Shown here in pieces: positions 13,197 to 63,303 of a DNA stretch of 64,000 bases. Position 1 is the first letter of the stretch, and the number at the start of each line of letters is the position of its first letter. This DNA comes from Alphaproteobacteria bacterium (GTDB lineage Bacteria; Pseudomonadota; Alphaproteobacteria; RF32; CAG-239). The translations under genes were made by a program, and so were the position numbers. The notes below the pieces were generated by a model. The model saw only the letters and a list, made by a program, of their open reading frames with translations, was not told where the DNA came from and searched no databases. The stretch covers positions 36,916-100,915 of the forward strand of contig SUUK01000006.1 in NCBI GenBank assembly GCA_015062535.1, in the 5' to 3' direction.

Positions 13197-13208
13197 CCAA
13201 AATATAGC

Positions 13209-13237
13209 TTGATTTTTATTTGTTAAATGCTTATACT
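13209..13237 (+). promoter_or_regulatory. Sigma70-type promoter of the tmRNA gene
   Basis: TTGATT (13209-13214) and TATACT (13232-13237) are separated by 17 bp. Transcription would begin about 13244, just at a small hairpin (AGCTT-tt-AAGCT, 13245-13257) and before the acceptor piece of tmRNA. Confidence 0.65.
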
Positions 13238-13261
13238 TTTATCAGCTTTTTAAGCTATGAT

Positions 13262-13545
13262 ACGAAAAGCCGTATGGAATAGATATATTGGACCCGGGGG
13301 CGGTACCCGGCACCTCCACCAAAATTTTTAAGGGGGTGAAATAGGTTTGACAGTGTATAGTAAAGATATTTGTGCTGTATTCGGCAAGATACCACCGTTA
13401 TCGGTTCAAATTAAATAAACGCAAATGATAATTTTGCACCAGTTGCTGTAGCTGCTTAATTTAGGCAAAGCAACGAATAAAATCCTTTAGGCATTGGTTT
13501 GCCCAAAGTGGGGGAGAAGCCACCTAGCAACAGAACGGCTTATTT
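13262..13545 (+). ncRNA. ssrA: Transfer-messenger RNA, circularly permuted two-piece form
   Basis: tmRNA frees stalled ribosomes and adds a degradation tag. The order is permuted: the 3' acceptor piece comes first, with a T arm (CCGGG, loop, CCCGG) and CACCTCC-A-CCA ending at 13321. A 10-nt spacer follows, then the 5' piece starting GGGGGTG at 13332. GGGGGTG pairs with CACCTCC and includes the G3-U wobble read by alanyl-tRNA synthetase. The tag frame (13421-13459) reads A-N-D-N-F-A-P-V-A-V-A-A-stop. AAGCCGT near 13267 pairs with ACGGCTT near 13535, closing the two pieces together; outer limits are approximate. Confidence 0.93.
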
Positions 13546-35719: not shown

Positions 35720-36679
35720 TTATCTTAAAGAATTAATTTTGTTTTGAAGATCATCAAAACTTCTACCATAGAAAGGTTCGCCATTTATAAACAACATAGG
35801 CACACCATTAATGCCAAGAACTTGAGACAAAGCATCAATATCTTGAACACCTCTACGAATTTTCTTTTCTTCAATCATCTTCTTTACTTCATCAACATCT
35901 AATTCTTCATCAACAAGAATTTGGTTGATTGTTTCTTCATTCATATTAGGCAAAGTCATAATCCCTTCAAACACTGGCAAGAATTTACCTTTTTCAAATG
36001 CCGCCAATGAAACCTTTGCCGCATATTGCGAATGTTCTGTCATAAAGTATAAAGGGTTAAATACAAATTTAACATCATCATTTTTCTTAATAAGTTCAGC
36101 CAAAACAGGTGCTAAAGCCTTACAATGCCCACAAGCAAAATCAAAAAATTCTACAACTGTAATTTTTGCATCCTTAGGACCAATAAATGGAGCAACATCA
36201 CCATTTGCCATCTTATCCCAGTTGTCTTTATACTTTTGATTTTCATCAACCTTATTATTTTCTTCAACATTTGGCTCTTCTGTTACCTCATCTTCTGTTA
36301 CTTCAATTTTCACATTTCCTAATATGAGATTTTTAACTCTCTCATCTTCCATAACCAAATCAGCAATAAAAGAAGCATTATTTCTAACATATTCTTCCAT
36401 TGCTCTAGGATTATTATCAAGATAATTTGCAATTTGTTTTTCTAATTCTTCTACACCAATGGTTGAAAAAGATTTTATTGTTTCACCAAAGTTTTCACTT
36501 TTTGCAATTTTTTCTAAAATAAGCTTTGGATTATTTTCAATATATTGAGCAACTTTTGCTTCAATTAATTTATCTTGCTTTGCTATTCTCTCAGGACATT
36601 TATCATACAAATAAATAGCCCCTCCAGCGATAGCACAAAAAGCAACTCCCATAAACAATGTCTTTAATACTGCTTTCAT
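35720..36679 (-). CDS. DsbA-family thiol-disulfide oxidoreductase with N-terminal helical extension
   Basis: The 319-residue protein is exported or membrane-anchored (hydrophobic segment about 5-25). Residues 40-120 hold repeated helical units (A-Q-Y-I-E-N-N-P-K-L-I-L-E and A-N-Y-L-D-N-N-P-R-A-M-E-E), as in ScsC/Com1-type proteins whose stalk makes oligomers. An acidic linker follows (about 125-150), then a thioredoxin fold with the active site C-G-H-C at 183-186 and a cis-Pro loop G-I-N-G-V-P-M. It probably acts as an isomerase or oxidase in the periplasm. The hairpin array lies upstream. Confidence 0.87.
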   Translation of the reverse strand: MKAVLKTLFMGVAFCAIAGGAIYLYDKCPERIAKQDKLIEAKVAQYIENNPKLILEKIAKSENFGETIKSFSTIGVEELEKQIANYLDNNPRAMEEYVRNNASFIADLVMEDERVKNLILGNVKIEVTEDEVTEEPNVEENNKVDENQKYKDNWDKMANGDVAPFIGPKDAKITVVEFFDFACGHCKALAPVLAELIKKNDDVKFVFNPLYFMTEHSQYAAKVSLAAFEKGKFLPVFEGIMTLPNMNEETINQILVDEELDVDEVKKMIEEKKIRRGVQDIDALSQVLGINGVPMLFINGEPFYGRSFDDLQNKINSLR

Positions 36680-36952
36680 AAATCTAAATCCCTCAAAAAA
36701 AAATAATAAACTACACTAAAAATCTAGCAGATTCGTAAATCATTGCAACCAATTTTATTTTTCTTAAACAAAAAACTTGACTTTTAAAATATTTAATATA
36801 AAACGAAGCTACTTTTGAATTATTCATACATTATTATACATAGAGTATCTAGTTTGCCAAAATAAAATATACTCTACTAACATTTTTATCACAACGCCAA
36901 CATTTTTTGTTTGCTCTTGTGTCGTAAAAATGTGTCTCGAATGGTTAAGAGC
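36680..36952. other. AT-rich leader of the hairpin-array region
   Basis: This non-coding stretch lies between the DsbA-like start and the first hairpin. It holds A/T runs and a TATACA near 36835 that could be a -10, but no well-spaced -35 is evident. No gene or known repeat is seen. Confidence 0.4.
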
Positions 36953-37452
36953 AAAACAGTCCCCTTGTGAAAGGCGACTGTTTTAAAAAGAGATTACAAC
37001 CACATTTTTTAATGTGAATATATATATACCACTGTTTACGTTTTCTGGCCATAAAAAATCATTCTCCTTGTGAAAGGCGACTAATTCACTGATTCAATTT
37101 AGGCATTTTGTTTAATTGTAAAACAGTCCCCTTGTGAAAGGCGACTGTTTTTTCTAAGACTACAATAAAACCAGCAATGGTTACTATATATTTTCTTACT
37201 CTTTCTTGTCACGTTTTTCTAAGTCGTGAGTTTTCATAGTAAAACAGTCCTCTTGTGAAAGCCGACTGTTTTTAAATTAGAGTAATACTATTTTTTTCCT
37301 AGATATAAAACAGCTAGCTTGTGAAAGTTGGCTGTTTTCAAAAGAAACAAATCAACCAGTAATGGTTACAACATATTTTTTGCTCTAGTTCGTTAATGTT
37401 TCAAATCTGTGTTTGAAAATCCAACAGCCCGCTTGTGAAAGTAGGCTGTTTT
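36953..37452. repeat. Array of six 32-nt hairpin repeats with a constant GUGA-capped core
   Basis: Six units start at 36953, 37056, 37120, 37241, 37307 and 37421. All have the core CTTGTGAAAG, which folds as a CUU/AAG stem capped by GUGA, a GNRA tetraloop. Units 1 and 3 are identical over 32 nt. The outer stem is AACAGTC/GACTGTT in units 1, 3 and 4, and AACAGC/GCTGTT in units 5 and 6, so both arms change together; unit 2 has a weak outer stem. Spacers alternate long and short (71, 32, 89, 34 and 82 nt). Several units end in T runs like terminators. No coding frame crosses the array. Confidence 0.85.
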
Positions 37453-37496
37453 TTTTGCTCAATTTTATTTTTTTTAAATCTAAAAAAAATAAACAC

Positions 37497-37862
37497 CTAA
37501 TCCGACCATCCTTTTATGGTAACGATAACATCTTTCATTCTACTAAAAAAAGTTGCTGTACTGCTAAAATACCTGCTTTTTAAATTATTCTTTTCATGAA
37601 TATCACCAATTCCAGGCGCAACATTATACATTCCAAGATAAAGAAAAAAAGAAACCAAACAAACAACAAGCCACCTTAGCTTTTTTCCGAGGGCAAAAAA
37701 CAACAACGAAAAAAACGAAACAACCCCTGCAATAAAATAAACACTATAAATAACAACATTGGCGCTCTTGGTCAATTCTAAATCTTCCATAATAAATAGA
37801 CCAACAACGCCAACTGCCAAAAACTTTAAAAGAAAAAGAGTTATAGTAAGCAAAATAAACAT
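37497..37862 (-). CDS. Small multispan membrane protein, unknown function
   Basis: The 121-residue product has three hydrophobic segments (about 2-25, 34-58 and 64-85) and a soluble C-terminal part of about 35 residues. AAAGGAG precedes the ATG. It lies 28 bp downstream of the GT8 gene and may share its transcript. No family is recognised. Confidence 0.6.
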   Translation of the reverse strand: MFILLTITLFLLKFLAVGVVGLFIMEDLELTKSANVVIYSVYFIAGVVSFFSLLFFALGKKLRWLVVCLVSFFLYLGMYNVAPGIGDIHEKNNLKSRYFSSTATFFSRMKDVIVTIKGWSD

Positions 37863-37890: not shown

Positions 37891-38961
37891 TTAAGATAGT
37901 TTTGGAAGTGGGGTATAATATTTATACCACAATTTCTGCAACATATAAAAGAAATCAGTTTTTTCAACTTCTATACCAAGAGGTTTTTTAGAAGACGCAA
38001 AGTGAATAATTGTCGCCCCACTAAATACATCTTCATAACTCTTCCAATCTTTGCCATAAAATTCTGCTAATTTACTAATTGGATTATGTGCAAAAAAGAA
38101 ATTCATTGTATTAAATTTCACATCCATAAGTTGAACTTTATCACCCACAACAACATTAAGCGCATCTTGGTCCATATATGTACGGAAGTTATTATTTGTA
38201 TAGTCTTCTAGCTTTTGAATTATACCATCTTTACGAATTTTATCCAAATTCATAAGCATCACACCACTATTAAAATAAAATCCTCTTTCCTCAAGATTTA
38301 ATTCTAATACATGTTTATTTTCAAAAAACCAAGAAGGATCTTTTACAACTGCCAAATAATTGTCACCAAGATTAATTTTATACAGTTCATTTAAATCATG
38401 CAAAACCAAAATATCAGAATCAACATAAAGTGCCTTATCAAGCTCAGGTAATTGCTCTGCGATATAATACTTTAACAAAGATGCTTTAGAAACATGAGTA
38501 TCCCTAATATAGAACAAATCAATTTGTTTTTGCTCTAAAACTCTAACATTAACATTTTCACCTTTAAGAGCTTCCAAAGCTTCTTTATCACCATCTTGAA
38601 GAGCAATAGTCATAACATGAAAATTGTAAACACTATCAGGACACTTTGTCTCTTTTGCAGAATTAATTGCAACTCTTGTAAAGTCCATATAGTTAGCATC
38701 AGTAATCAAAACTATATCAACGTCCCCGCTAACCCCTTCACAATTTTGAGGCTTAATTTTCAAATCAAAATCATAACTTGTATAGTCATCTAAAGAAGAA
38801 ACACTTTCTAGTTTTTCGATATTATCAAGCTCTTGTCTTTTATTCTTACTTGCAATTTTTTCAAAATAAGAAGCTACCAACAAAAGTACCATAATTGCAA
38901 CAAGCAAAATATTTGCAAAAATAACCCATTTCATACCCGGATCTTTTTTTTCGTCACTCAT
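37891..38961 (-). CDS. Family 8 glycosyltransferase with N-terminal membrane anchor
   Basis: The 356-residue protein has an N-terminal span (about 12-33) and then a GT8 domain of the LPS glycosyltransferase/glycogenin type. Evidence: D-I-V-L-I-T-D-A-N-Y near 82, L-Y-V-D-S-D-I-L-V-L near 177 (the D-x-D metal site), F-N-S-G-V-M-L-M-N near 230, M-D-Q-D-A-L-N near 268, and a C-terminal I-I-H-F-A metal/UDP phrase. AGGAG precedes the ATG. GT8 enzymes use UDP-glucose or UDP-galactose; an N-terminal anchor is unusual and is shared with the GT2 and RgpF-like proteins here. Confidence 0.87.
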   Translation of the reverse strand: MSDEKKDPGMKWVIFANILLVAIMVLLLVASYFEKIASKNKRQELDNIEKLESVSSLDDYTSYDFDLKIKPQNCEGVSGDVDIVLITDANYMDFTRVAINSAKETKCPDSVYNFHVMTIALQDGDKEALEALKGENVNVRVLEQKQIDLFYIRDTHVSKASLLKYYIAEQLPELDKALYVDSDILVLHDLNELYKINLGDNYLAVVKDPSWFFENKHVLELNLEERGFYFNSGVMLMNLDKIRKDGIIQKLEDYTNNNFRTYMDQDALNVVVGDKVQLMDVKFNTMNFFFAHNPISKLAEFYGKDWKSYEDVFSGATIIHFASSKKPLGIEVEKTDFFYMLQKLWYKYYTPLPKLS

Positions 38962-61959: not shown

Positions 61960-62050
61960 GGAGATGTGGCAGAGCTGGTTTAATGCACCTGACTTGAAAT
62001 CAGACGAGGGCGCAAGTCCTCCTGGGGTTCGAATCCCTACATCTCCGCCA
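61960..62050 (+). tRNA. tRNA-Ser (anticodon UGA)
   Basis: The acceptor stem GGAGATG pairs with CATCTCC, followed by G and an encoded CCA at 62048-62050. The anticodon loop is CTTGAAA (anticodon TGA) on a CTGA/TCAG stem. A long variable arm (GAGGGC-GCAA-GTCCTC) is typical of class II serine tRNA, and the T arm has GGTTCGAATCC. Reading frames across it are spurious. Confidence 0.96.
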
Positions 62051-62470
62051 ATAAAAAGAAGCCGTCCCTTGTGGATGGCTTTTTTTTATTGTTGCGAAGT
62101 GTTGGATTTGAACCCCAGGAGAGAGGGGTTCGACTACAAGCGAAAGGCGGACGGAAGAACGCCGGTAAGCCTTAAGGCTTATGAGCGCCAGTGAGATTGA
62201 GCAAAGCGAAATCAATCCCTTTCATCTATCCGCCAATAAAAAGAAGCCGTCCCTTGTGGATGGCTTTTTTTATTGTTGCGAAGTGTTGGATTTGAACCCC
62301 AGGAGAGAGGGGTTCGACTACAAGCGAAAGCGAGACGGAAGTATCGCGGTAAGCCTTAAGGCTTATGAGCGCCAGTGAGATTGAGCAAAGCGAAATCAAT
62401 CCCTTTCATCTATCCGCCAATAAAAAGAAGCCGTCCCTTGTGGATGGCTTTTTTTTATTGTTGCGAAGTT
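62051..62470. repeat. Tandem 184-185-bp repeats with terminator hairpins after tRNA-Ser
   Basis: Units start at 62051, 62236 and 62420 (the last is partial). Each begins with a terminator hairpin (GCCGTCC-cttgt-GGATGGC plus T run) and ends AATCCCTTTCATCTATCCGCCA, much like the 3' end of tRNA-Ser (AATCCCTACATCTCCGCCA). The middle has GGGGTTCGACTAC and a palindrome TAAGCCTTAAGGCTTA. It looks like repeated duplication of DNA joined to the tRNA 3' end. Confidence 0.8.
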
Positions 62471-62547: not shown

Positions 62548-63303
62548 TTATTCTCTCTCAACCCCTTGAATAATCACATTCTCTTCAGTCTTCTCATTTC
62601 TTTTCTTAACCGCATCAATTATTGCTTTTTTTATTTTCTCATCCTTTGCAATTATCAAAGCAGTATCACCAGTAACACTTTTTGCATTAACATCAGCCCC
62701 TTTTTGAATTAAAAGCTCCACAACTTCCTTACGTCCACCACATGAAGCCCTCATCAAAGCTGTATTACCATCCTCATCTTTTTGATTAACATCTGCACCA
62801 TTTCGAATTAATAACTCAACAACTTCTTTATATCCCCAATATGAAGCCCTCATCAAAGCTGTATTACCATTGTTACTTTTTGAATGAACATCAGCCCCAT
62901 TTTGAATTAGAAGCTCAACAACTTCTTTATATCCCCAATATGAAGCCCTCATCAAAGCTGTATTACCATCCTCATCTTTTTGATTTACATCAGCTCCCTT
63001 ATCTATTAATTCTTCAACGTCTTTTTTTTCTCCATTTTCACAAACTTCTATTAAATCCCAACCAAGCTTTTGTGCAATTTCTTCATCAAAAATATCTTTT
63101 GCGCCATTATTTTCTAAAAACTCTATAACTTTTTGATTATTTACCTCATTTGCAAGCTTTAAGGCAGACTTCGCCCCATACATAGCATTAACATCTACGC
63201 CAAGCCTAATTAGCATATCAATCTTGGCAAGCTTAATATTTTCAGCCATTTCTTCATCTTTGATTATATCAAACAATTGGCTTTCTAGGATTTTTTCACT
63301 CAT
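62548..63303 (-). CDS. Ankyrin-repeat protein
   Basis: The 251-residue protein has the family head (I-L-E-S-Q-L-F-D-I-I-K, then D-M-L-I-R-L-G-V-D-V-N), a degenerate zone, then about four ankyrin repeats, three nearly identical (T-A-L-M-R-A-S-Y-W-G-Y-K-E-V). The tail lacks the basic K-I-K-K-L-F motif of some relatives. The shared promoter is at 63334-63362, and GAGG precedes the ATG. Close DNA likeness to the gene 52318-53175 points to recent duplication within the genome. Confidence 0.9.
   Translation of the reverse strand: MSEKILESQLFDIIKDEEMAENIKLAKIDMLIRLGVDVNAMYGAKSALKLANEVNNQKVIEFLENNGAKDIFDEEIAQKLGWDLIEVCENGEKKDVEELIDKGADVNQKDEDGNTALMRASYWGYKEVVELLIQNGADVHSKSNNGNTALMRASYWGYKEVVELLIRNGADVNQKDEDGNTALMRASCGGRKEVVELLIQKGADVNAKSVTGDTALIIAKDEKIKKAIIDAVKKRNEKTEENVIIQGVERE

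What the first reader, a model, noticed from the sequence alone, without database searches (positions are those of the whole stretch)
36953..37452. Array of six GNRA-capped hairpins with constant core and covarying stems
Six 32-nt palindromic units have an invariant core, CTTGTGAAAG (a CUU/AAG stem with a GUGA loop). The outer stems change in both arms together (AACAGTC/GACTGTT against AACAGC/GCTGTT). Spacers alternate long and short (71, 32, 89, 34, 82), and the long spacers share a small hairpin (AACCAGTAATGGTT, or the similar ACCAGCAATGGT). An unchanged core with compensated stems suggests a structured RNA with a bound partner, or tandem small RNAs each ending in a terminator-like stem. No cas genes or coding frame explain it. 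I know of no described RNA family with this layout, but no search was made.
Basis: partly seen in the sequence, partly recalled or inferred. Interest (0 to 1): 0.85.

Follow-up and report, generated by a model that had tools for sequence, protein, structure and literature searches.

The report
Hairpin-bead decoy RNA in Alphaproteobacteria
In a family of uncultured Alphaproteobacteria, strings of two to seven hairpins with one and the same cap lie, in nearly every case, behind a promoter-like site and stop at a terminator-like end; each string is predicted to be a small RNA gene, with no match in the Rfam library, and it likely soaks up an unknown RNA-binding protein.

Summary
In detail: six 32-nt units with the invariant core CTTGTGAAAG lie at 36953-37452 with the stated spacers; unit 2 has a weak outer stem. 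It is not a one-off. Strings of 2-7 such hairpins occur in at least 11 of 18 genomes of the genus and in two other genera of the family, at several different loci. The cap is UU-GNGA-AA (loop GUGA, GCGA or GAGA) and the stems covary strongly. In 18 of 19 units a TTGAC[AT]-N16-18-TA site lies 54-209 nt upstream of hairpin 1 (shuffles: mean 0.8, maximum 4), and the last hairpin has the best or equal-best U-tract in 16 of 17. G-U pairs and GNRA-type loops put the RNA on the + strand. In the window this predicts one RNA from about 36812 to 37456. No Rfam family reaches its gathering score here; CsrA and ProQ were not found in this genome. Hairpin number and spacing vary freely while the cap does not, so I favour a bead-on-a-string decoy for a protein that reads the cap. 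Partner and expression are untested. Lone hairpins of this kind at gene ends elsewhere fit ordinary terminators. Rated a new variant of a known kind.

The parts
36777..36804 (+). predicted promoter: TTGACT, 16 nt, TAAAAC; start of the RNA expected near 36812
   Evidence: same type of site upstream of hairpin 1 in 18 of 19 units; 1000 shuffles mean 0.8, maximum 4; opposite strand 1 of 19. The generic promoter scan did not list it
36880..36933 (+). leader stem (ACATTTTTATCACA / TGTCGTAAAAATGT)
   Evidence: inverted repeat I10, present in the predicted fold
36953..36984 (+). hairpin 1, GUGA cap
   Evidence: fold -14.9 kcal/mol, 0 of 200 shuffles; model R3 43.6 bits
37056..37087 (+). hairpin 2, GUGA cap, degenerate outer stem
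   Evidence: fold -4.8 kcal/mol, 14 of 200 shuffles as good; R3 33.4 bits
37120..37151 (+). hairpin 3, GUGA cap
   Evidence: fold -14.9 kcal/mol; R3 43.6 bits
37169..37182 (+). small spacer hairpin AACCAGCAATGGTT
   Evidence: sequence; shared with the next module
37209..37229 (+). spacer stem TCACG ... CGTGA
   Evidence: sequence, predicted fold
37241..37272 (+). hairpin 4, GUGA cap
   Evidence: fold -10.7 kcal/mol; R3 39.0 bits
37307..37338 (+). hairpin 5, GUGA cap, fully paired stem
   Evidence: fold -17.1 kcal/mol; R3 39.5 bits
37354..37367 (+). small spacer hairpin AACCAGTAATGGTT
   Evidence: sequence
37421..37452 (+). hairpin 6, GUGA cap, predicted intrinsic terminator
   Evidence: fold -14.3 kcal/mol; best U-tract of the six, 8 of 8. 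The strict generic terminator scan listed none
37449..37456 (+). U-tract; predicted end of the RNA
   Evidence: sequence
35720..36679 (-). flanking DsbA-like gene, divergent from the RNA gene
   Evidence: Pfam PF01323 / PF13462
37497..37862 (-). flanking 121-aa protein with hydrophobic stretches (no Pfam match), convergent; the same neighbour stands beside an array of genome G007 (L091)

Best explanation
The stretch is predicted to be one noncoding RNA gene (promoter 36777-36804, end near 37456) whose repeated hairpins, all with the same UU-GNGA-AA cap, likely act as binding beads that soak up an RNA-binding protein. Shown: the hairpins, their constant cap, covarying stems in relatives, promoter-like and terminator-like sites around nearly every unit, and free variation in hairpin number (2-7) and spacing. 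Inferred: transcription; that the cap is read by a protein; that the RNA lowers the free amount of that protein and so releases its targets, as CsrB-type RNAs do for CsrA. The protein is unknown and is unlikely to be CsrA or ProQ.
For: Strings of capped hairpins in at least 11 of 18 genomes of the genus and in G054, G126, G087 and G100 of two other genera. Covariation on 53 hairpins (52 distinct): 163 double-changed cells against 58.5 in shuffles, score 0.660 against 0.239, at most 0.181 when slid. In a count that did not select on pairing, 63 of 64 caps in 18 units have at least 7 of 12 flanking positions pairable; the exception is at a cut contig end. Folding of 17 units: 58 of 138 hairpins carry a GNGA loop and 54 of those 58 are closed by UU/AA; antisense 0 of 130; shuffled 3 of 514 (the units had been chosen for holding the cap). 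Promoter-like site in 18 of 19 units. Last hairpin with 6 or more T in 8 in 16 of 17 units; 31 of 40 internal hairpins have fewer T than the last one of their unit (counted). Strand: + strand 459 of 507 cells paired, - strand 417 of 507. Varying number and spacing of hairpins argue for independent binding beads over a fixed tertiary fold. CsrA and ProQ not found, controls working.
Against: No expression data. No partner identified. No set of strong single-copy sites in this genome on which such a protein would act: beyond the array the best R3 match is 20 bits. In 7 of 18 genus genomes (one of them 65% complete) I recognised no string, only lone weak matches, so the RNA is not needed throughout the genus or has decayed. 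The generic promoter and terminator scan found no excess here (6 promoters against 5.7 expected, 0 terminators). Alignments were partly selected for pairing. Several units come from close relatives (G009/G010) and are not independent. Hfq was not tested. The loop may be favoured just because GNRA loops are stable, though GNAA loops are rare here (4 of 62 GNRA-type loops).
Confidence: 0.45

Rival explanations
1. A trans-acting small RNA that works by base pairing through its single-stranded linkers; the capped hairpins only give stability and termination.
For: Noncoding RNA gene layout is the same. Most known trans-acting bacterial small RNAs pair with mRNAs (established knowledge). Spacer modules in the window share short stretches.
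Against: Linkers are poorly conserved, even inside the dnaG-linked group (mean column identity 55%), whereas the cap is constant; a purely structural role would not need UU/AA next to the loop or a G at loop position 3.
Confidence: 0.25
2. A cluster of tandem intrinsic terminators that keeps neighbouring genes apart, with no function as an RNA.
For: Hairpin 6 and several others end in U-tracts, hairpin 3 with 7 T in 8. Lone hairpins with the same cap stand at gene ends elsewhere in the family.
Against: 18 of 19 units start with a promoter-like site, which an insulator would not need; 31 of 40 internal hairpins have weaker U-tracts than the last; among 339 terminator-like hairpins in 431 kb of fetched DNA the 40 GNGA-capped ones all lie at model matches or in the same strings, so the cap is not the usual terminator loop.
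Confidence: 0.12
3. A self-folding scaffold RNA whose GNRA loops dock into helix receptors of the same or another copy.
For: GNRA loops are known tertiary contact elements (established knowledge); GUGA is such a loop.
Against: Hairpin number (2-7) and spacers (about 17-160 nt) vary between relatives, which fits no single fold; I saw no constant receptor motif but did not search for one systematically.
Confidence: 0.1
4. A mobile or REP-like palindromic repeat, or a DNA-level protein-binding site.
For: Arrays sit at several different loci in different species.
Against: One locus in this genome, all six units in the same direction; no match in plasmids, phages or viral contigs; strand-specific G-U pairs and promoter-like sites.
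Confidence: 0.04

Closest known systems
CsrB / RsmY / RsmZ family (multi-hairpin RNAs that titrate CsrA/RsmA; features recalled, listings seen)
   Same: stand-alone RNA made of many small hairpins with one repeated recognition element, ending in a terminator
   Different: repeated element here is UU-GNGA-AA, not a GGA in the loop; no CsrA gene found in this genome; no Rfam match at gathering score
CrfA sponge and SisA-D of Caulobacter crescentus (PMC12559287, abstract and outline read)
   Same: Alphaproteobacterial RNA that works by soaking up other molecules; SisA-D form a family of sibling RNAs
   Different: CrfA inactivates small RNAs, found by RNA-RNA pairing on Hfq; the abstract mentions no repeated capped hairpins
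GlmY decoy for RapZ (PMC7073468, start of abstract seen in the listing)
   Same: a small RNA called a decoy that acts through an RNA-binding protein
   Different: one partner RNA (GlmZ) is mimicked (recalled); no array of equal hairpins is mentioned in what I saw
L17 downstream element, RF01708 (PMC2864571, passages read)
   Same: simple bacterial motif whose strand was argued from G-U pairs and GNRA loops, as here
   Different: listed for Lactobacillales and Listeria, linked to ribosomal protein L17

Membership tests
CsrB/RsmZ-type CsrA decoys | a CsrA/RsmA partner in the genome | tested here: not met
   PF02599 no match in G000; control found it in 3 of 14 reference genomes
CsrB/RsmZ-type CsrA decoys | repeated GGA motifs in hairpin loops | tested here: not met
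   recurring tetraloops are GUGA/GCGA/GAGA
CsrB/RsmZ-type CsrA decoys | stand-alone transcript with several hairpins and a terminator | tested here: inconclusive
   promoter-like and terminator-like sites; transcription not testable here
any family of Rfam release 15 | match at the family's gathering score | tested here: not met
   none over the array; in 10 relatives' loci only three tRNAs; the permissive scan gave 27 sub-threshold matches, best GibS 33 bits against 115 and BTnc231 30.1 against 80.4
REP / BIME / REPIN elements | many dispersed copies in the genome, often in both directions | tested here: not met
   one locus, six units, one direction
REP / BIME / REPIN elements | a RAYT-type transposase | not tested
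   no genome search was left for it
CRISPR array | near-identical repeats with spacers of uniform length | tested here: not met
   outer stems differ; spacers 71, 32, 89, 34, 82
CRISPR array | adjacent cas genes | tested here: inconclusive
   six neighbouring proteins scanned with Pfam, none matched a Cas family; the wider region was not scanned
Type III toxin-antitoxin (ToxI repeats) | regular tandem repeat directly followed by a toxin gene on the same strand | tested here: not met
   irregular spacing; the downstream gene is convergent
16S rRNA helix 35 mimic | same UU-GUGA-AA tip in the host's own 16S rRNA | tested here: not met
   the one 16S match has TCGTGAGA at that place (helix number recalled)

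The most novel reading that the evidence does not exclude
A lineage-specific global regulatory system: a bead-string RNA, rebuilt again and again from one capped hairpin, that titrates an undescribed RNA-binding protein reading UU-GNGA-AA, in bacteria where no CsrA or ProQ was found. It would be an independent invention of the CsrB/CsrA principle.
Probability: 0.3. Interest if true: 0.8.

Novelty: new variant of a known kind. Interest (0 to 1): 0.58.

Why it matters
If right, a family of uncultured Alphaproteobacteria has a post-transcriptional regulator that rests on a tetraloop code I found no description of, and the bait to fish out the protein is already in hand: any one of these hairpins. 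It would show that titration by hairpin strings evolved more than once. Even without the protein part, this is a covariation-supported RNA candidate that no Rfam family covers at its cut-off and that can be searched for with the models made here.

Tried and rejected
Rfam at gathering score and permissively: nothing credible. CsrB/CsrA: no CsrA. ProQ: none (control found it in 1 of 14). 16S helix 35 mimicry: host 16S differs. Plasmids, phages, viral contigs: no match (by blastn; by one exact pattern). Synteny at the window's own place: the 121-aa neighbour is present in 17 of 18 genus genomes, but an R3 array lies beside it only in G000 and G007; in G009 a contig end leaves only 162 nt to look at. 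Weak R3 matches in L149 (22 bits) and L151 (17 bits) were not counted; L149's looks by eye like an ordinary gene-end stem. Lone hairpins outside strings: many fetched ones stand right after genes and look like terminators; a rough estimate of mine (about 570 tetraloop terminators per genome, 1/64 for G.GA, about 1/16 for UU/AA) gives about 0.5 per genome by chance, so I do not count them. Lone weak matches in the seven genus genomes without a string were rescanned: at most two per genome, those in G011 about 900 nt apart. Class-wide: 15 of 189 other genomes with weak matches, none clustered; only two of the 15 (G201, G319) were fetched. G080 (L082) and G140 (L121), two hairpins each, look similar but were left out of the counts as uncertain. 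Three non-alphaproteobacterial-family pattern hits (L100, L102, L109) showed one lone hairpin each in two and none that passed the pairing filter in the third. Papers: seven searches; nothing in the rows shown describes such an RNA, but three of them listed only part of what they found (20 of 21, 15 of 83, 15 of 143), and subscription journals are not held.

Rows and biases: A2 (40 rows) and A3 (53 rows) were picked mostly by a script that asked for TTG[N][R]AAA and at least 7 of 10 pairs, so their covariation is inflated and the never-varying pairs are partly built in; I left out near-identical copies (five of L042, one of L041, one of L043, three of L050) and strings found later (L110, L111, L114). 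One search is the check without selection on pairing (selection on the cap remains). One search folded 17 of these units. G009 and G010 are close relatives and not independent. Most loci were chosen by the models, so its share of capped terminators is not a genome rate. Promoter sites were first scored within 190 nt with a bare TTGAC[AT] (14 of 19; shuffle mean 2.4, maximum 8; opposite strand 2); after looking further upstream of the dnaG-linked units I used 220 nt and the two-part pattern (18 of 19), with the same 220 nt in its shuffles.

Full report
What is there. Six 32-nt units with the exact core CTTGTGAAAG lie on the + strand at 36953-37452, in the gap between a DsbA-like gene (35720-36679, -) and a 121-aa protein gene with hydrophobic stretches (37497-37862, -), followed by a family 8 glycosyltransferase (37891-38961, -). 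Five units fold as complete hairpins; unit 2 has lost much of its outer stem. The core occurs eight times in the 1.73 Mb genome, six of them here. With the broadest model (R3, E up to 10) the six score 33-44 bits and the next match in the genome 20 bits.

Relatives. A covariance model of these six units plus one relative (R1) gave matches at E up to 1 in 18 of 18 genus genomes, most of them lone and weak, but clustered in several. Reading the fetched stretches shows strings of hairpins with cores such as TTTGTGAAAA, TTTGCGAAAA and CTTGAGAAAA. In six species (G003, G006, G008, G009, G010, G016) the string lies just downstream of a gene I read as the primase gene dnaG and convergent to a long protein gene (844-951 aa as read, some cut); in G006 and G010 the two sides are on separate contigs. 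Others sit elsewhere: G014 (L047), G007 upstream of a rhodanese-like gene (L048; my naming), G007 beside the same 121-aa gene as in the window (L091), G017 and G002 (L114, L111). With G000 that makes 11 of 18 genus genomes; in the other seven (G001, G004, G005, G011, G012, G013, G015) I recognised none. In the family, R2 matched 67 of 126 genomes at E up to 0.05 and R3 71 of 153 genomes of the order sample at E up to 0.01, every one of them in this family; most of these are lone hairpins, and I fetched only part of them (20 stretches, 20). Strings in two other genera: G126 and G054 (between a deaminase-like and an HD-like gene, my reading), G087 (two units in a row) and G100. In the class sample (190 genomes) 15 others had weak matches, none clustered.

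Structure. On 40 hairpins 11 of 13 pairs change on both sides while staying paired; score 0.627 against 0.228 in shuffles. On 53 hairpins 0.660 against 0.239, at most 0.181 for slid partners. The two pairs next to the loop never vary, partly because the core was asked for. Without selection on pairing, 63 of 64 caps in 18 units have at least 7 of 12 flanking positions pairable, and folding 17 units gives 58 GNGA loops among 138 hairpins, 54 closed by UU/AA, against 0 of 130 on the opposite strand and 3 of 514 in shuffles. In G017 and G002 the pair below UU/AA is G-C in two of three hairpins each, where others have C-G or U-A. In the dnaG-linked group the 5' part also has two stems with compensated changes, GTCTG[CT]/[GA]CAGAC and a CAT-GNGA-ATG hairpin (one extra loop base in G003).

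Strand and gene layout. On + 459 of 507 pair cells are standard (55 G-U), on - 417. Units 1 and 6, the two also folded on -, fold about as well there, so energy alone does not decide. A TTGAC[AT]-N16-18-TA site lies 54-209 nt upstream of hairpin 1 in 18 of 19 units (1000 shuffles: mean 0.8, maximum 4; opposite strand 1; G100 is the miss). In the window it is TTGACT-N16-TAAAAC at 36777-36804. The generic scan did not list this site, found no excess of promoters (6 against 5.7 expected) and no terminator by its strict rule; my claim rests on the comparison across units. The last hairpin has 6 or more T in 8 in 16 of 17 units (G009b is the miss) and at least as many as every internal one in 16 of 17, four of them ties (G054 is the miss). 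The longest open frame on + that overlaps the stretch has 56 codons and runs out of it.

How it likely works. Constant cap; drifting stems, linkers, number and spacing: this is what repeated, independent binding sites look like. I therefore read it as a decoy RNA that soaks up a protein recognising UU-GNGA-AA. CsrA and ProQ domains are not found in the genome, with working controls. No second set of strong sites is seen in the genome, which is a real weakness: the targets may carry weaker or single-stranded forms. The best of the weak matches (L134) is the terminator-like end of a 49-codon frame with its own promoter-like site. The rival of a base-pairing small RNA stays open; the insulator and mobile-element readings are much weaker.

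Known relatives. It works like CsrB/RsmZ but fails both defining features that could be tested (GGA loops, CsrA). No Rfam family matches at gathering score. Seven paper searches (I saw listings, one outline with abstract and passages of one paper) showed no description of such an RNA.

Noticed in passing
window 62044-62469: A 184-nt unit repeated 2.3 times (97% match) directly after tRNA-Ser (61960-62050); it seems to carry pieces of the tRNA 3' part.
   Followed up: partly
window 62678-62994: A 99-nt repeat, 3.2 copies at 85%, probably a coding repeat.
   Followed up: no
window 13205-13544: Permuted (two-piece) alphaproteobacterial tmRNA gene, tag ANDNFAPVAVAA.
   Followed up: no
L134 1200-1545 (own genome C14): Promoter-like TTGACA, a lysine-rich 49-codon frame and a UUGUGAAA-capped terminator-like hairpin, beside a gene that resembles the long gene next to the dnaG-linked strings of relatives.
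   Followed up: partly
L118 1650-2300 (-) and L121 1130-1610 (+): In two genomes of another genus, intergenic stretches of about 450 nt start with TTGACAAAATTT and end in a GNGA-capped hairpin; no Rfam match. Possibly another noncoding RNA.
   Followed up: partly
L091 100-330: Repeated short elements around CGCTTCGCTCGCAATGACG upstream of the array in G007.
   Followed up: no
L041, L043, L048, L049, L050: Five of the first ten fetched strings lie at contig ends, so assemblies probably break at the repeated hairpins and copy number is underestimated.
   Followed up: no
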